In this document: positions 1-12,968 of the stretch, piece by piece | Layout: every line of letters begins with the position of its first letter | Position numbering within the stretch: position 1 is the stretch's first letter | Assembly: GCA_001465025.1 (NCBI GenBank) | Contig: LNDO01000044.1 | Coordinates: 1 to 51,153, forward strand | DNA: 51,153 nt | DNA from: Pseudomonas sp. Ga0074129 | GTDB taxonomy: Bacteria > Pseudomonadota > Gammaproteobacteria > Pseudomonadales > Pseudomonadaceae | Reading direction: 5' to 3' | The notes under the pieces: model-generated | Told to the model about the DNA's origin: nothing | What the model saw: only the letters and a program-made list of their open reading frames with translations | The model's database searches: none | Made by a program: the position numbers and the translations under genes

Positions 1-99
1 CGGTGTCCGGATGCTCGTGGAATGAGTGTCCGGATCAGCGTGGAATCACTGTCCGGATGTGCGTGGAATGGGTGTCCGAGTCAGCGTGGAATCCGCACA
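1..99. mobile_element. End of an IS21-family-like insertion sequence (terminal repeats only)
   Basis: Four tandem copies of a 23-bp unit are visible, with GTCC cores at about 5, 28, 51 and 74 and consensus GTGTCCGGAT followed by CAGCGTGGAATCA. The array stops at a CA dinucleotide at 98-99 (or 96-97), and host coding sequence begins immediately after it. Multiple short terminal repeats ending in CA are typical of IS21-family ends, and I recall very similar repeats from Pseudomonas IS21 elements. The transposase genes lie outside the window. The exact end base and the target duplication cannot be fixed from one side. Confidence 0.7.
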
Positions 100-3914: not shown

Positions 3915-5369
3915 TCAGCGCTGGGCGCTGAGTTTTGGTTTTGGCTGGCGGTAGAGGTCGATCAGTACCTGATCAAGAATCGACGAAGCTCCCCATGGAC
4001 GTGGGTCGTTGAGGATGGCCACCACGGCCCAACTGTTGCCGTTGCTGTCGCGGCTGTAACCGGCGATGGCGCGCACGTTGTTGAGCGTGCCGGTTTTGAT
4101 CCGTGCTTCACCAACCAAGGGGGTGCGGTGCAGGCGTTTGCGCATCGTGCCGTCCATTGCTACCAGCGGCAGTGAAGCCATGAACTCGGCGGCATAGGGA
4201 CTCTTCCAAGCTGCCTGCAACATGGCAGCCATTTCTCGTGCGCTGACGCGTTCGTCGCGAGACAGACCTGAACCGTTCTCAATCACCAGATGGGGAGCAG
4301 TAATACCCTTGCGTGCCAGCCAACTGCGGATTACGCGCTGCGCGGCCTTGCTGTCATCCTGGTCAGCGGAGTTACGGAACTGCGCGCCCAGGCTCAGGTA
4401 AAGCTGACGCGCCATGGTGTTGTTACTGAATTTATTGATGTCGCGGATGATTTCGGTCAGATCCGGAGAAAAGGCCCGTGCCAGTAAACGCGCATTCTCC
4501 GGCACCGGTGCCAGACGGTCTTTGCCCATGATGCTGCCGCCCAACTCCTGCCAGATTGCGCGAATGGCACCGGCCGCGTAACCCGGGTGGTCGAGCAAGG
4601 AGAGGTAGGTTTGCGCACTGCAACCATTGGGCAGTTGCCCGGTGACGATCACCGTAGTGCCGTCAAACTCAGTAACCGGGTTATAACGCACGTCCGGCCA
4701 GCCTGGGCATTTGGCGGCAGGCAGGACTTTGAGGCGGTTGTCGATGCGAATGCTGGCAATCGGTGGCTCAATCGCAATAAAGGCTTTGCCGCCTTCGGTG
4801 CGGGCGATAAAACGCAACGCCTTGAGGTTGACCAGTAGGGAGTCGGGCGTGACCAGAAACGGCTTGTTGGCATCGCCACCGTCATCGTTGAACTCGGGCA
4901 ATTGCGGTTGCACGAAGTGACTGCGGTCCAACACCAGATCGCCGTTAACCTGCAGCACACCATTAGCGCGCAGGTCGCGCATCATCAGCCACAGGCGCTC
5001 CATGTTCAGCTTGGGATCACCGCCGCCTTTAAGGTAAAGATTACCGTTTAGCACGCCGTCTTTTAGCTGGCCGTCGGTAAAGAACTCGGTTTTCCATTTA
5101 TGCGTGGGGCCGAGCAATTCCAGTGCCGCGTAGGTGGTGACCAGCTTCATGGTTGAGGCTGGGTTAACGGAAATATCGGCATTCACAAAGTTGCTATTTC
5201 CGGGACCATTGAGCGGCACCAAGGCGACAGCCAAGGATTGACTGCTGATCTTGTTGGCTTTCAGTGATTGCTGAACTTTGTTGGATAACACGCCATTGGC
5301 TGCTGCCAGAGGTAAACACACCGGTAACAAGAGACTGGCCAGTGCCAGGCGACGCAATGATTTGATCAT
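3915..5369 (-). CDS. dacB: D-alanyl-D-alanine carboxypeptidase/endopeptidase, PBP4 type (peptidase S13)
   Basis: This periplasmic penicillin-binding protein trims the terminal D-Ala of peptidoglycan stem peptides and cleaves D-Ala-meso-DAP cross-links during wall recycling. In some pseudomonads its loss activates AmpC beta-lactamase expression. The 484-residue product has a signal peptide (about 1-24) and all three active-site motifs: SxxK at Ser72-Lys75 (STMK), SxN in FSNNTM, and KTG in IKTGTLNN. The long insertion between SxxK and SxN is typical of S13 enzymes. The start is ATG at 5369, because AGGAGG lies 10 bases upstream and the signal peptide begins there; a longer reading to 5414 is unlikely. 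A Fur-box-like sequence lies about 60-78 bp upstream of the start. Confidence 0.93.
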   Translation of the reverse strand: MIKSLRRLALASLLLPVCLPLAAANGVLSNKVQQSLKANKISSQSLAVALVPLNGPGNSNFVNADISVNPASTMKLVTTYAALELLGPTHKWKTEFFTDGQLKDGVLNGNLYLKGGGDPKLNMERLWLMMRDLRANGVLQVNGDLVLDRSHFVQPQLPEFNDDGGDANKPFLVTPDSLLVNLKALRFIARTEGGKAFIAIEPPIASIRIDNRLKVLPAAKCPGWPDVRYNPVTEFDGTTVIVTGQLPNGCSAQTYLSLLDHPGYAAGAIRAIWQELGGSIMGKDRLAPVPENARLLARAFSPDLTEIIRDINKFSNNTMARQLYLSLGAQFRNSADQDDSKAAQRVIRSWLARKGITAPHLVIENGSGLSRDERVSAREMAAMLQAAWKSPYAAEFMASLPLVAMDGTMRKRLHRTPLVGEARIKTGTLNNVRAIAGYSRDSNGNSWAVVAILNDPRPWGASSILDQVLIDLYRQPKPKLSAQR

Positions 5370-5742
5370 GGGTAGATACCCTCCTGTTGAGGGGAAATAG
5401 ACAGTGCGAAGCAAAATTCGCAGATTTAGATTATGAGAATGATTATGCCCCAGGATGGCCCTGGCTGAGCGCCCAGATTCTTGATTAACAGGACTTTAAT
5501 TGCAGCTATGCCCGATTGGCTGAGGCGCGGCGATAGTTTCTGCTGTTGTGCTGGCCACGATGAGCGAAACAAGCGGTAGTTTAATGGGCTTCGCTGAACA
5601 CGCGTCCAACTAAAAGGCGCGCGCAGTTCAAACAATATGGCTTGGATGAAGACGAAGATGACGCACCTGTCGTCTTCCAGGCAGGCACTTGGGCGCTGAA
5701 ACTGCTAAAGTGCCGCGCGTAATTACTTTTGAGGATTGTCCC
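5370..5742. other. Divergent intergenic region dacB/yggL
   Basis: This 373-bp region should hold the promoters of dacB (leftward) and yggL (rightward). Besides the Fur-like box at 5429-5447, it contains an open plus-strand frame without a standard start from 5585 to the stop at 5720-5722. The frame encodes an acidic stretch, LDEDEDDAPVVFQAGTWALK, with coding-like composition. It could be the tail of a lost gene or chance; I see no RBS or ATG for it. I saw no further gene or repeat. Confidence 0.5.
5429..5447. promoter_or_regulatory. Fur-box-like sequence upstream of dacB
   Basis: GATTATGAGAATGATTATG matches the classical 19-bp Fur consensus (GATAATGATAATCATTATC) at 15 of 19 positions, and can be read as three successive hexamers GATTAT, GAGAAT and GATTAT. 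It lies 60-78 bp upstream of the dacB ATG, where a repressor could cover the promoter. Iron control of dacB is an inference from this match. Confidence 0.5.
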
Positions 5743-6084
5743 ATGGCTACTAACCGTTCCCGCCGTCTGCGCAAAAAACTCTGCGTGGATGAATTCCAGG
5801 AGCTGGGTTTTGAGCTGAACCTGAACTTCAAGCAAGACCTGGCTGATGAAGCCATCGACAGCTTTCTTGAGCAGTTCCTGAGTGAAGCAATGACCGCTAA
5901 CGGCCTTGGCTATGTTGGCGGTGATGACTTCGGTCTGGTATGCCTGTCCAAGCGTGGTTCGGTCAGCGCTGAGCAGCGCGCCGCTGTTGAAGCCTGGCTC
6001 AAGGGCCGTGACGAGCTGGTGGATTTCACTGTCAGCCCGCTGATTGACGTCTGGTACCCGGATACTCCGATTCCCCAGGCTTAA
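5743..6084 (+). CDS. YggL-family protein (DUF469, 50S-associated)
   Basis: This 113-residue protein opens MATNRSRRLRKKLCVDEFQE, then has the conserved GFELNLNF, LGYVGGDDFGLVCLSKRGS and DVWYPD segments of the YggL/DUF469 family. Members have been reported to associate with the 50S ribosomal subunit, and their molecular function is poorly known. The ATG at 5743 is preferred over an upstream in-frame ATG at 5689 because GAGGA lies seven bases before it and the family N terminus starts there. It is transcribed divergently from dacB. I recall this pairing in other Pseudomonas genomes. Confidence 0.9.
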   Translation: MATNRSRRLRKKLCVDEFQELGFELNLNFKQDLADEAIDSFLEQFLSEAMTANGLGYVGGDDFGLVCLSKRGSVSAEQRAAVEAWLKGRDELVDFTVSPLIDVWYPDTPIPQA

Positions 6085-6097
6085 TCGCTACAACTCT

Positions 6098-6134
6098 TTC
6101 CCGTGTTGTCGGCAGCGCGCTGATAACACGGGAA
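6098..6134. terminator. Inverted repeat between yggL and the HD-GYP gene
   Basis: Ten-bp arms TTCCCGTGTT and AACACGGGAA are separated by 17 nt, 13 bp past the yggL stop. The T-tract is poor. The repeat sits between convergent genes and may terminate both. Confidence 0.45.
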
Positions 6135-6185
6135 TAGCCTCAGTTCCTTCTCTACCCGCACTAATCCCTTCTGCGTAGCGGCCAT

Positions 6186-9152
6186 TCAAATTAATCCCGC
6201 CTTGGCCAGTAATGCCGCTTGATCGATGTGATCGATCTGTTCCTTGTGTAAGAACAACTCGGCATATTTCTGATAGATCCGCTCGCGAATAAACAGCTCA
6301 AACAACTCGGGGTCGATGTGTGCGCCTTTGCACATGCTTGCCATGATGGCGAGCGATTCGGAGAGTAATTTGCCTTTCTTATAGGGACGGTCAGCCGCCG
6401 TGAGCGCCTCGAAAATATCGGCTATGGCCATCATCCGGGCCGGCAAACTCATGTCCTCACGCTTGAGGCGTTTCGGGTAGCCGGTGCCGTCCATTTTCTC
6501 GTGATGACCACCGGCAATTTCAGCGACGTTAGCCAGGTGCGGCGGGAAGGGCAGGTGGCTGAGCATGCGGATGGTCTGCACCATGTGGCCGTTAATGATG
6601 AAGCGCTCTTCTTCGGTCAGCGTGCCGCGGCTAATACTCAAGTTGTACAACTCGCCACGGTTGTATTTATAGGTGGGCACGTCGAGCTTGAAGCCCCAAG
6701 GATTGTCCTCAGCGATTCGCTCAGTGTCAGGCCGTTCGATCAAGTGCTCCGCTTTGTCGCTAAGCAATGTTTCCTGCACAGGCAGTGGCTGCGCAGGCTG
6801 ACGTGTCTGTCGCAGGTTTTCTTCCCACGATACGCCCAGGCGATCGTCCAATGTGCGTGTCCAAGTGCGTGCGCCAATCTCCCGCAGGCGTTGCAAGTCG
6901 GCCTCGGCCATGGCTTCGCCACCCAGATTGCAACGGGCAATAAAGGCAAACTCTTCATCCAGCGCCGCCAATAATGCATCGCGCTCCTGGCTCAGGCGCT
7001 CGGTATCACCGCCTTGGCTCACGTGCTGCCAATAGAGAATCCAGGCATCACGCTTGAGCACTTCGAAACGCATACGCACCTCATGGATACGGTCGCATAG
7101 GGTTTCCAGTTTGGTGGCTTTGTCCACCACATATTCCGGCACGGTGACCTTGCCACAGTCATGCAGCCAGGCCGCGATATGCAGGGCCTCCCATTCTTGT
7201 TCGGTGGGTTGATAAGTATTGAAGGGCGCTTGGGTGCTGTCGGCAGCGGCGCGGGCGAGCATCAGCGTGATGGCGGGTACGCGCTGGCAATGGCCACCGG
7301 TGTAAGGGCTTTTGGCGTCGATGGCCCCCGCGATGAGCTGAATAAATGCGTCCAGCAGTTTTTTCTGTTGATCGAGCAGGCGCTGGCTTTCGATGCACAG
7401 CGCTGCAACGCCTGATACCGCCTCCACAAAGGCAATGCGTTCAGGGCGTAGCATGGCCAGCCGAGTTTCATCGCCGGTGTCGCGGTGCAGGAGTACCAGC
7501 ACGCCCAAGGTTTGCCCCTGACGATTATGCAGGCCCGTACAAACCAAGTGAGCGCGTGGGCTTTCGAGCGCATGCAGCAGGCTTTGGAAGCTTTGCGCAT
7601 GCTCAAAGCCAAGGGCCACCGTGACACTGTCGCCGCCATTGGCAACCTGCGCGAGCCAATCCGGTAGTTGCGCGTCTGCCTGCTCGAACACGGGAATAAC
7701 GTGACTGAGTAAGCTTTGCGGCTCTTGATCGATCAAAAGTTCGTAAGGTTCTAGCCGGCCGGTGTTCATGTCGCGTAGGTAAAGTAAACCGCCACTGGCT
7801 TCGCTCAAACCGACGGTTTCACGCAGCACGCGATGCAGCAGTGCATCAAAGCGGGTTTCGGCGGACAGGCTGGCGGTAATGTCGAGAAAGCTGGCGATGG
7901 TGTCTTTCATGTGTTTCATCGCCACAGCCAGTTGATCGACTTCCTTGACCATGGAGCGTCCGCTGGCCGGGTGGTCGAAATCAAAACGGCGTATCGCTTC
8001 GGATTCACCCACAAGCACGCGCAGTGGTTTGACCAAGATGGTCGAGAACACCCAGCCCAGCGGAATGCACAGCAACAAGATGCTCAGGGTCAGAACGGCA
8101 CCTTGCCAGCGAATGCGGTAGGCGTCGGCCAGCAGTTCCTGTTCGGGCGCCATCAAGGCCAAGTGCAAGCCCTGCGGGCCACCTTCGCTTAACCGGCTGT
8201 AGGATACGTGCCAGCGTTGTTGGTTAAGCATCAACACGCCTTGGTGGTCTTGCTGCAGATTCAGCGCGCGGAACGCTGCCAAAACGGGGCTGAGGGTGTG
8301 TAGCGGAGCCAACTGCAGGGTCTGGCCGGGGATAACCAAGCGTGAACTGTCGGGATAGGCGACCGCGCTACCATCGCTGCTGTAGAGCACCACTTCGGTT
8401 GATGGCGTGAGTTGATGAGCCGCGAGCGTCGCAGAAAGATCATCCAAAGTAAGGTCTGCACCTATCACTGTTTCAGCACTGCTTTTACGCGCGATGGTGG
8501 TGCCGATCTCACTGCTGGAGAAAAACACATAAGGTGCGGTGGTGAAATGCGCCTCACTGTCCAGCGCCCCGTGATACCAAGCGCGGCTGCGCGGATCGAA
8601 AGTTTCACGGAGGTTTTGCCGACGGTTGAGCGGTTTTAACTGCGCATCGAAAAACTGATGTTCCGAGTCGGCCTGCTGCGTGCTGATGCGGTCGATGCTC
8701 CACACTTGAAACGCCGCATTAGGGGGCGCATAAAAAATATCGCGCAGTTTTTGGCTGCGCAGTGGGCGCACCATAAAGAAATCACCATTGCCATAGCCGA
8801 TGTAGATCGATGCCAGCTTAGGGTTGTCGCGCAGGGCTTGAGCAAAAATGGGCAACATGACCATGCGGTCATGGCGGTCGCGACCGTTGACCTGCTCGTT
8901 ACGCGCCAGCAAGTTGATCATGGCGTTAATGGGTTGGTAGGTGTTGCGCAGATCCGCTTTGACTTCCTGGCGCATCTGGGAAAACAACTGGTTGCTGCTG
9001 CTGAGGATGATGTCGCTGGTTTGCTGGTAGTTAAACAGCCCGAGCAGCGCGCCCGAACTGAGCAGCAAAAAGGTAAAGAGTGCACTGATATGAATGTGCA
9101 GCGGAAAGCGCCTTGCGCGCATTCCTGTTTTGCCCCGTGCGTGCTCTTGCAT
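6186..9152 (-). CDS. Membrane Cache-HAMP-GAF-HD-GYP protein, probable c-di-GMP phosphodiesterase
   Basis: This 988-residue protein has a first membrane helix (about 18-41), a large periplasmic Cache-type sensor (about 45-345), a second helix (about 350-373), HAMP (about 375-425), a GAF-like domain (about 440-590) and a C-terminal HD-GYP domain. The metal-site motif HDCGK lies near 664. The GYP signature HHEKMDGTGYP lies near 889, followed by ADIFEALTAADRPYK. HD-GYP enzymes hydrolyse c-di-GMP to GMP or pGpG. The HD and GYP parts are about 225 residues apart, far more than in compact members, implying an insertion of about 160 residues. The start is ATG at 9152 (AAGGAAAGG upstream); 9191 lacks an RBS and 9122 is too close to its purine run. 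Substrate and ligand are inferred. Confidence 0.88.
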   Translation of the reverse strand: MQEHARGKTGMRARRFPLHIHISALFTFLLLSSGALLGLFNYQQTSDIILSSSNQLFSQMRQEVKADLRNTYQPINAMINLLARNEQVNGRDRHDRMVMLPIFAQALRDNPKLASIYIGYGNGDFFMVRPLRSQKLRDIFYAPPNAAFQVWSIDRISTQQADSEHQFFDAQLKPLNRRQNLRETFDPRSRAWYHGALDSEAHFTTAPYVFFSSSEIGTTIARKSSAETVIGADLTLDDLSATLAAHQLTPSTEVVLYSSDGSAVAYPDSSRLVIPGQTLQLAPLHTLSPVLAAFRALNLQQDHQGVLMLNQQRWHVSYSRLSEGGPQGLHLALMAPEQELLADAYRIRWQGAVLTLSILLLCIPLGWVFSTILVKPLRVLVGESEAIRRFDFDHPASGRSMVKEVDQLAVAMKHMKDTIASFLDITASLSAETRFDALLHRVLRETVGLSEASGGLLYLRDMNTGRLEPYELLIDQEPQSLLSHVIPVFEQADAQLPDWLAQVANGGDSVTVALGFEHAQSFQSLLHALESPRAHLVCTGLHNRQGQTLGVLVLLHRDTGDETRLAMLRPERIAFVEAVSGVAALCIESQRLLDQQKKLLDAFIQLIAGAIDAKSPYTGGHCQRVPAITLMLARAAADSTQAPFNTYQPTEQEWEALHIAAWLHDCGKVTVPEYVVDKATKLETLCDRIHEVRMRFEVLKRDAWILYWQHVSQGGDTERLSQERDALLAALDEEFAFIARCNLGGEAMAEADLQRLREIGARTWTRTLDDRLGVSWEENLRQTRQPAQPLPVQETLLSDKAEHLIERPDTERIAEDNPWGFKLDVPTYKYNRGELYNLSISRGTLTEEERFIINGHMVQTIRMLSHLPFPPHLANVAEIAGGHHEKMDGTGYPKRLKREDMSLPARMMAIADIFEALTAADRPYKKGKLLSESLAIMASMCKGAHIDPELFELFIRERIYQKYAELFLHKEQIDHIDQAALLAKAGLI

Positions 9153-11703: not shown

Positions 11704-11949
11704 TTAAAAACCGGCGGCGTCGATGTCGATGAGCAAGAGCCGCTTGCCGTTGTCGATAAATTGTCCGGCTGTCAGGCAGTACTGGTTGGTGGTGGCGTCG
11801 CGGTAGGTGCTGGAGAGAATCAGTCGGCGTTCTTCCCAGCCTTCGGCCAACAGCTGGTAGAAGTACGGTCGCCAGGACCAGTTGTGGCCGATGTAGCGGC
11901 TGTCGCTGTGCCAGGTCTGTTCGCGCCATTCCAGGTTGGCAGTCAGTTG
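11704..11949 (-). pseudogene. Displaced 3' part of the EAL-protein gene
   Basis: The minus-strand frame from 11949 to the TAA at 11704-11706 encodes 81 residues, including NLEWREQTWHSDSRYIGHNW, SWRPYFYQLLAEGWEERR and QYCLTAGQFIDNGKRLLLID. It has no start codon or RBS of its own. Joining it at the CAACT target duplication to the upstream EAL gene gives one continuous frame of about 387 residues, so it is the original C terminus. The residues resemble a Cache-like sensor domain, which I recall at the C terminus of some Pseudomonas EAL proteins. It is probably untranslated after the insertion at 11950-12045. Confidence 0.85.
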
Positions 11950-12050
11950 TGGGATGAAAATAAAGTGTCATCCGTATAAATAAAGTTTCATCCTTTCGCC
12001 GATTGAGCAGCCATCTGCATGTAAAAAGCTGGAATCTGCGAGGCAAGTTG
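11945..12050. repeat. 5-bp target-site duplication AGTTG flanking the insert
   Basis: AGTTG occurs at 11945-11949 and 12046-12050, directly abutting the TG and CA ends of the inserted sequence. Removing the insert and one copy restores the reading frame (codons GGC ACC CAA CTG ACT). This defines the insertion to the base. Confidence 0.85.
11950..12045. mobile_element. 96-bp TG...CA element (solo end or internally deleted transposable element)
   Basis: The insert begins TGGGATGAAAAT and ends GCGAGGCA, with a perfect 5-bp duplication outside. Inside it are two direct repeats, AATAAAGTGTCATCC (11959-11973) and AATAAAGTTTCATCC (11979-11993), 14 of 15 identical with a 20-bp period, like transposase-binding sites at one end. 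The other end shows no such repeat. TG...CA termini and a 5-bp duplication occur in IS21-like and Tn7/Mu-type elements; I cannot assign the family. It has no coding capacity, so it would need a transposase supplied in trans. It differs in sequence from the IS end at 1-99. Confidence 0.75.
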
Positions 12051-12968
12051 GGTGCCATGGCGGTCGCATTGGTAAATGCGCAGCAGCCAGGGGTGGGCGT
12101 GCGGATGGGGTAATTGTTCGGCGTGTTCGCCCGCACTGATCCAGGTTTTGAAGCTGTTCATCAGCTCGCCTAGTTGCTGGCGCAGCGTCATCAGGCGTGC
12201 GCGCTCGGCGAGTTTTTGTTGCACATAATGGTCGCGTAGTTGAGCAAAGCGTTTAACAAAGGCCTGGCTGCTGAAAAAGGCTTCTTCAGGTTTAGCAAAC
12301 AGATAGCCCTGCACATAGCGCGCGCCGCATTCGAGGGCAAAATCCAGCTCTGCTTCGGTTTCGACTCCCTCGGCAATGATCCAGCAGCCGGTTTTTTCCG
12401 CCATCTGTGCCAGCGCTTTCACCACCTCGCTGCTGGGGCCGCCACGCGCAGCTTGTTGAAATAGGCGCATGTCGAGTTTGAGTATGTCCGGTTGCAAAGC
12501 CAGCACGCGGTCGAGCTGCGAATAGCCTGCGCCAAAATCGTCGATGGCGATTCTCGCCCCCGCTTGGCGGTAAGACGCCACTACGCCGGGCAAACGGCTG
12601 CTCGCACCACCCAGTTCGGTGATTTCAAACACAATCCGTGCCGGGTCAATGCCACTGTGTCCCAGTTGTTTAAGGCTGGGCAGAGGCTGCGCTGGACGAA
12701 GGCGGCTGATCCAGCGCGGTGAGATATTTAAACTGAGGAACCAGTCCGAAGGCGCCTCATGAAAGCGACTTAGCGCCTGGCGGCGGATTTCACGATCTAG
12801 GCGGCGTAGAGCGGCCGGCGGTGTTTTGGGGTCGCTGAACAATGGACCCGCCGAGTGCAATCGCCCGTCATCGCTGCGCAGCCGCGCCAGTGCTTCAACA
12901 CCGGCAATACGCCCGGTGGCGGTATCGATGAAGGGTTGGAAAACAGCAAGCGGTTGTCCATTGAACAC
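11988..12968 (-). CDS. EAL-domain protein, probable c-di-GMP phosphodiesterase, C-terminally truncated
   Basis: This 326-residue product consists of an N-terminal EAL domain (about 1-240) and a partial C-terminal domain. Catalytic motifs look intact: EALARL, LSLNIS, FEITEL, DDFGAGYS, LKLD, AEGVET and VQGYLF. EAL enzymes linearise c-di-GMP to pGpG. The frame leaves native sequence after GTQL (residue about 308) and picks up about 18 foreign residues from the 96-bp insert before TGA, losing the last 80 or so residues of the sensory domain. The start is GTG at 12968 with AAGGA eight bases upstream. The enzyme may still be active but uncoupled from its signal. Confidence 0.88.
   Translation of the reverse strand: MFNGQPLAVFQPFIDTATGRIAGVEALARLRSDDGRLHSAGPLFSDPKTPPAALRRLDREIRRQALSRFHEAPSDWFLSLNISPRWISRLRPAQPLPSLKQLGHSGIDPARIVFEITELGGASSRLPGVVASYRQAGARIAIDDFGAGYSQLDRVLALQPDILKLDMRLFQQAARGGPSSEVVKALAQMAEKTGCWIIAEGVETEAELDFALECGARYVQGYLFAKPEEAFFSSQAFVKRFAQLRDHYVQQKLAERARLMTLRQQLGELMNSFKTWISAGEHAEQLPHPHAHPWLLRIYQCDRHGTQLASQIPAFYMQMAAQSAKG

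What the first reader, a model, noticed from the sequence alone, without database searches (positions are those of the whole stretch)
11945..12050. 96-bp TG...CA element with perfect 5-bp target duplication splits an EAL phosphodiesterase gene
Seen directly: AGTTG flanks a 96-bp sequence beginning TG and ending CA. Excising it with one AGTTG restores a continuous frame of about 387 codons. The insert carries two 15-bp direct repeats (14 of 15 identical, 20-bp period) at one end only and no coding capacity, so it looks like a non-autonomous or internally deleted element mobilised in trans. It removes about 80 C-terminal residues that resemble a sensory domain while leaving every visible EAL catalytic motif intact. 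Its repeat sequence differs from the IS end at position 1, so a second element family is or was active. I do not recall a named element of this form.
Basis: partly seen in the sequence, partly recalled or inferred. Interest (0 to 1): 0.7.

Follow-up and report, generated by a model that had tools for sequence, protein, structure and literature searches.

The report
Half-assembled miniature Tn7-like element
A short piece of mobile DNA that interrupts a signalling gene turns out to be one end of a tiny, gene-less relative of the transposon Tn7, and its odd 98-letter length is probably a genome-assembly error rather than biology.

Summary
The letters are as reported: AGTTG flanks a 96-bp TG...CA stretch, and without it the EAL gene reads 387 codons. 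The interpretation needs correcting. The insert is the first 98 bp of a 194-bp element found whole, with AGAAC on both sides, on a Pseudomonas veronii plasmid. Its end (TGTGGG, then 16-mers 20 bp apart) matches right ends of Tn7-like transposons: in G256 such an end lies between glmS and tnsA-tnsB-tnsC, and that TnsB matches Tn7 TnsB at E=3e-187. So this is a miniature, gene-less Tn7-like derivative. The duplication expected here is TCAGT; 'AGTTG' is AGT plus the element's own TG. The missing right half is probably an assembly error: overhangs of contig ends into other repeats fit a de Bruijn k of 99 (20 of 20; 5 more), and k=99 predicts cuts at 98 bp here and 97 bp in the second copy, as observed. 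Ten relatives aligned show the uninterrupted gene. By-product: the qnrS2 'mobile insertion cassette', described without a transposase, has ends built the Tn7 way.

The parts
11948..12045 (+). visible piece (98 bp) of a miniature Tn7-like element: its right-end-like half, starting TGTGGGATG
   Evidence: 97 of 97 identical to C80:33604-33700; 98 bp at 99.0% identity to the first half of the 194-bp element in NZ_CP142043.1
11958..11973 (+). first 16-bp transposase(TnsB)-type site AAATAAAGTGTCATCC
   Evidence: same spacing as right ends beside tnsA; binding not shown
11978..11993 (+). second 16-bp TnsB-type site AAATAAAGTTTCATCC, 20 bp on
   Evidence: binding not shown
11943..11947 (+). TCAGT, the 5 bp outside the element's end; inferred true target duplication
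   Evidence: family rule of 5-bp duplications outside TGT(G/T)GG; inference
12046..12048 (+). AGT, remnant of the second copy of TCAGT
   Evidence: inference
   Evidence: relatives read through without insert
11988..12968 (-). broken EAL-domain gene, 326-codon frame ending inside the insert; EAL domain residues 8-227 present
   Evidence: PF00563, E=7.2e-45
11704..11947 (-). cut-off 3' part of the EAL gene (C-terminal region)
   Evidence: 387-codon frame without the insert; the five relatives printed have a similar tail

Best explanation
A miniature, gene-less derivative of a Tn7-like transposon (about 194 bp: a right-end-like half with two transposase sites 20 bp apart and a left-end-like half with two widely spaced sites) was inserted into an EAL gene by a TnsA/TnsB/TnsC-type transposase acting in trans, duplicating TCAGT and cutting off the protein's C-terminal part. 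The window shows only the first 98 bp because the short-read assembly could not cross this multi-copy repeat and the contig was joined wrongly at its k-mer limit. Shown: ends, family, complete relative elsewhere, empty site, k-mer fit. Inferred: the trans-acting transposase, the missing right half here, and the effect on the protein.
For: Ends: first 46 bp are 40-42 of 46 identical to five right ends that precede tnsA-like frames or annotated tnsA (G270, G256, G258, L151, L153). tnsA, tnsB, tnsC and glmS identified by profile in G256, tnsA and tnsB by solved Tn7 proteins too. Complete 194-bp relative with AGAAC on both sides; two own copies with both ends and 5-bp duplications GCGTG and TCGCA. 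Own genome: 15 places match the first 26 bp with up to 3 mismatches, 0 for the reversed control. Assembly: k=99 fits 9 of 9, 6 of 6 and 5 of 5 contig-end overhangs, 2 of 2 more, and 3 of 3 more once two diverged copies are left out (2 of 3 with them in). Four identical copies would give 98 here and 97 at C80 (seen 98, 97) and 97 at C41 (seen 97). Empty site: 10 of 10 loci aligned.
Against: Of the eight element sides predicted for four identical copies, three fit exactly; C94's left-type side is 96 against 98, the right-type sides of C94 and C41 are 34 and 33 against 98 and 97, and the left-type sides of the window copy and C80 are absent. C80 has no duplication, and about 70 bp present beside the site in G014 (hairpin-like and REP-like by eye) are missing there; a simple join does not explain that. 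C41 and C94 are continuous 130-bp forms with perfect duplications, so shorter real derivatives may exist. No matching tnsB was found in this assembly (one hit, 28% identity, on C34). No reads were available.
Confidence: 0.82

Rival explanations
1. The assembly is right: this and C80 are real remnants of the 194-bp element that lost their right halves (and 2 bp of the duplication here, more DNA at C80).
For: The contig runs through without a break; a shared stretch of 97 bp is just short enough for k=99 to cross (reasoning). C80 lacks flanking DNA, as an old deletion would.
Against: Two loci would have to break at the same base, which is also the k-mer limit inferred from other contig ends.
Confidence: 0.14
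2. A separate 96-98-bp mobile family with its own right end (...GCGAGGCA) that makes AGTTG-type duplications, as first proposed.
For: Two loci share the same 97 bp.
Against: C80 has no matching duplication. In five elements with both ends the boundary is TGTGGG/TGTTGG with 5 bp outside it. The same 97 bp continues into a longer element in NZ_CP142043.1.
Confidence: 0.02
3. The ends belong to an IS21-type insertion sequence (tandem end repeats, TG...CA).
For: General likeness (recalled); my first reading.
Against: The end in G256 is followed by tnsA/tnsB/tnsC; its TnsB matches Tn7 TnsB 7pik at E=3e-187. The only Mu-transpos_C_2 hit in the own genome is on C116, and no end of this family was found in the 7,753-bp stretch around it.
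Confidence: 0.02

Closest known systems
Tn7-like transposons of the tnsABCDE type, on plasmids (e.g. p201330-IMP) and beside glmS
   Same: TGTGGG ends, 16-mers spaced 20 bp at the tnsA-side end, widely spaced sites at the other end, 5-bp duplications
   Different: the element here has no genes, is about 194 bp and sits at ordinary sites, not beside glmS
mic-qnrS2, the 'mobile insertion cassette' of Aeromonas plasmids (PMC2600179 and PMC5444012, passages)
   Same: no transposase gene; ends with tandem sites on one side and spaced sites on the other; 5-bp duplication CCTCC in pAC3, CGAAG in NZ_CP075565.1
   Different: its 22-bp ends differ from the window family's consensus at 4 and 5 positions and most of its sites end ATAC, not ATCC, so it is a sister type; it carries a passenger gene and is 1,370 bp in NZ_CP075565.1
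MITEs and TIMEs (Tn3-derived miniature elements, PMC4133298, passages)
   Same: short, no transposase gene, inverted ends, thought to move in trans
   Different: TIMEs derive from Tn3; here the ends are the asymmetric multi-site Tn7 type
the MITE inside the pAC3 cassette (PMC5444012, passages)
   Same: miniature element in the same plasmid context as mic-qnrS2
   Different: 75-bp core, 17-bp inverted repeats and 4-bp repeats, by that paper; not the window's element

Membership tests
Tn7-like transposon (autonomous) | encodes TnsA, TnsB, TnsC | tested here: not met
   98 bp cannot hold them; a TnsB of this kind is absent from the assembly
Tn7-like transposon ends | asymmetric arrays of TnsB sites (three left and four right in Tn7; PMC8649781 passages) | tested here: met
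   L063: sites at 11 and 31 on one end, 11 and 68 on the other; larger relatives 11/31/51 and 11/135/190. In the window only the right-type array is present. TnsB binding is not shown
Tn7-like transposon ends | 5-bp target duplication directly outside the ends | tested here: inconclusive
   met for L063, C94, C41, the outer element of L065, L064 and three own contig-end pairs; not met for L066 and L061; in the window only AGT of TCAGT remains
Tn7-like transposon | insertion just downstream of glmS (attTn7) | tested here: not met
   in G256, G270, G258 and G356 the end lies 28-29 bp past a glmS frame (glmS confirmed by profile in G256 only); the window copy, C80 and L063 lie elsewhere
MITE | short, inverted ends, no coding capacity, duplication, several copies | tested here: met
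   L063 (194 bp) and C94/C41 (130 bp) meet it; the window copy shows one end only
IS21 family | istA/istB between the ends | tested here: not met
   the G256 end is followed by tnsABC; no complete element with both ends and istAB was seen

The most novel reading that the evidence does not exclude
Tn7-like TnsABC machineries support a largely unnoticed class of miniature elements, from gene-less ones under 200 bp with only two sites per end to passenger-carrying 'mobile insertion cassettes' such as mic-qnrS2, which jump to ordinary sites away from glmS.
Probability: 0.6. Interest if true: 0.55.

Novelty: new variant of a known kind. Interest (0 to 1): 0.4.

Why it matters
It suggests a mobilising system for an orphan cassette described without a transposase in 2008 (PMC2600179, passages), and shows that natural Tn7-like ends can be very small: two sites per end, where one CRISPR-associated relative needs three on the left and two on the right for efficient integration (PMC10201428, passages). 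It also shows how a k-mer limit can create a convincing but false small element, and how contig-end overhangs alone can reveal it.

Tried and rejected
IS21 family was my first reading; dropped when tnsABC and glmS appeared beside the end in G256. A separate 98-bp family was dropped. Viral contigs: 0 matches to two internal words. Phage records: no match to the 194-bp element. Order: 6 of 390 genomes match the 194-bp element, this genome included; the five others match 27-48 bases a piece. Genus: 15 of 398 match the 98 bp, this genome included; the others match at most 49 bases a piece. Exact 26-base word in genome contigs: 3 stretches, scanned for ends only; L061 holds two opposed ends 295 bp apart without matching flanks. 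A gapped pattern in the own genome was badly written and found nothing; not used. Rfam: one tRNA in the window, nothing at the insert. The body of the larger collapsed element was sought by its TnsB and by left-end interior DNA and not found. No single trimming rule that I tried explains all four own copies. On re-checking I corrected an error of my own: I had taken the 2,371-bp element with CGAGG duplication in NZ_CP075565.1 for mic-qnrS2; it is an outer element of the window's family with the true cassette (1,370 bp, CGAAG) nested in it.

Full report
Observation. The sequence is as described. AGTTG stands at 11945-11949 and 12046-12050 around 96 bp that begin TG and end CA. The minus-strand EAL frame from 12968 runs 326 codons with the insert and 387 without it. 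The EAL domain, residues 8-227 of the broken frame, is present. One search found matches in 28 of 57 genomes (this one included) and brought 29 loci besides the window's own; ten of these were aligned to the joined flanks and all ten read through the site without an insert.

Family. The own genome (4.02 Mb, 124 contigs) holds the same 97 bp at C80, and 15 places that match the first 26 bp with at most 3 mismatches, against 0 for the reversed control. Of 72,556 plasmid records 78 match, and one covers the whole 98 bp, at 99.0% identity: Pseudomonas veronii NZ_CP142043.1. There the sequence runs on to a complete 194-bp element, TGTGGG...CCAACA, with AGAAC on both sides. Two own copies, C94 and C41, have both ends, 130 bp in all, and duplications GCGTG and TCGCA.

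Which transposon. Ends with the same 16-mers at 20-bp spacing lie 28-29 bp past a glmS frame in G256, G270, G258 and G356. In G256 and G258 frames of TnsA, TnsB and TnsC size follow; in G270 the first two follow before the fetched stretch ends; in G356 no frame of 150 aa follows that looks like them. In G256 they are TnsA (PF08722, PF08721), a TnsB with Mu-transpos_C, and a TnsC-like TniB/AAA protein, and the neighbour is glmS (TIGR01135). The TnsB matches solved Tn7 TnsB (7pik) over residues 4-691 at E=3e-187; TnsA matches Tn7 TnsA (1f1z, 1t0f) at about 2e-60. On plasmid p201330-IMP a right end identical over 98 bp to the own-genome end on C105 starts a set annotated TnsA, Mu-type transposase, ATP-binding protein, TnsD and TnsE. 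The opposite end of the family has three spaced sites at 11, 135 and 190 in G057 and pCTX-M3. Such asymmetric site arrays are reported for Tn7 and its relatives (PMC8649781, passages). The insert's first 46 bp agree with these right ends at 40-42 positions. So the insert is the right-end-like half of a miniature Tn7-like element. That a Tns transposase moves it is inference.

Boundaries. In L063, C94, C41, L064 and the outer element of L065 a 5-bp duplication lies directly outside the ends; L066 and L061 have none. Three pairs of own contig ends of the larger element fit the rule, three further ends have no partner in view. By this rule the element starts at 11948 and the duplicated bases are TCAGT; only AGT is left on the right. 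AGTTG is AGT plus TG, which the element supplies on one side and the gene on the other.

Why 98 bp. Contigs of this assembly end 94-98 bp inside collapsed repeats. If a contig stops where its flank no longer distinguishes the copies, the overhang is k minus the number of flank bases needed. For k=99 this fits 9 of 9 ends of the larger Tn7-like element (three unseen partners inferred from the duplications) and 0 of 9 for each other k from 95 to 104. Of the 19 places that match the repeat at window position 1, 6 of 6 in its own group fit, 5 of 5 in a second group and 2 of 2 in a third. In a fourth group 2 of 3 fit when all five flanks are counted and 3 of 3 when the two copies that differ inside the repeat are left out. 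The remaining three places, C18, C35 and C29, are not contig-end overhangs of this kind and were not counted. If all four own copies of the miniature element are identical 194-bp elements, k=99 predicts 98 bp here, 97 at C80, 97 at C41 (left-type side) and 98 at C94 (left-type side); seen are 98, 97, 97 and 96. The four other sides do not fit: 34 and 33 against 98 and 97 at C94 and C41, and nothing visible on the left-type side here and at C80. I take the 98-bp length as a wrong join at a collapsed repeat, with about 85% confidence; the misfits, the bases missing at C80 against G014 and the clean 130-bp forms are not explained.

Effect. With the assembled insert or with a whole element the EAL frame closes soon after the site (326 codons; 317), so the C-terminal region is lost and the EAL domain kept. 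Loss of function is inference.

By-product. In NZ_CP075565.1 an outer element of the window's family (2,371 bp, duplication CGAGG) holds a nested 1,370-bp element with qnrS2, duplication CGAAG. I take the nested one to be the published mobile insertion cassette: its two 22-bp ends differ from each other at 4 positions, and in pAC3 they are flanked by CCTCC, as PMC2600179 states (passages; it gives 1,375 bp). Its ends differ from the window family's 22-bp consensus at 4 and 5 positions (0 of 200,000 random 22-mers of that composition came within 5) and carry sites at 11, 32, 52 and at 11, 77, 132, the Tn7 layout. I read it as a miniature element of a sister Tn7-like family.

Literature. On the qnrS2 cassette I saw passages of PMC2600179, PMC5444012 and PMC4444841; no transposase is named for it in those passages and the word Tn7 does not occur in the papers' main text. 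Searches: Tn7-like, MITE and non-autonomous (1 paper); Tn7, miniature inverted-repeat transposable and TnsB; Tn7-like transposon and miniature (35, of which 20 listings seen); mobile insertion cassette and Tn7 (5); Tn7, nonautonomous and TnsB; qnrS2 and Tn7-like; qnrS2 and tnsB (0). Passages opened in PMC7043111, PMC3281130, PMC4133298, PMC8905914 and PMC9603283 describe no miniature Tn7-like element; the other papers in these lists were seen as listings only. The library lacks most subscription journals, so this is no proof of novelty.

Verdict. A real mobile insertion, read with wrong boundaries because the assembly is probably incomplete there. It is a new miniature variant of the Tn7-like kind, rare in the genomes searched (15 of 398 in the genus, 6 of 390 in the order have any match, outside this genome only short pieces).

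Noticed in passing
L065 (NZ_CP075565.1) locus 4841-6210, and L185 (pAC3) locus 1242-2724: The qnrS2 mobile insertion cassette has Tn7-style end arrays (11/32/52 and 11/77/132, read in L065) and 5-bp duplications; probably a miniature element of a sister Tn7-like family.
   Followed up: partly
L065 locus 4001-6371: An outer element of the window's own family (duplication CGAGG) with small hypothetical genes, into which the qnrS2 cassette is nested.
   Followed up: partly
L064 (pRA1) locus 4001-4928: A further element of about 0.9 kb with the same ends and a TCTAA duplication, holding one hypothetical gene.
   Followed up: partly
L149 6001-6097, L150 5001-5097: The left end of the larger own-genome element is present at 95-100% identity in 644 of 72,556 plasmid records; in the two opened aac(3)-IId lies within about 5 kb, and ISCfr1 is annotated beside it in one.
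   Followed up: partly
ends of own contigs C96, C9, C103, C105, C108, C91, C16, C109: A second, larger Tn7-like element shows six different flanking 5-mers, so at least six copies at ordinary sites (GCTGG, ATATC and CGAGT seen on both sides); its body is not in the assembly.
   Followed up: partly
L148 (own C34) 5292-9039: An unrelated set of a Mu-type transposase, TniB and TniQ, without ends of this family in the 11-kb stretch.
   Followed up: partly
L060 5504-5529 (Oceanisphaera arctica): A lone end of this family next to DNA that reads like another EAL gene; judged by eye only.
   Followed up: no
window 1-97: The contig starts inside the tandem-repeat end of a different multi-copy element; its overhang fits k=99.
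   Followed up: partly
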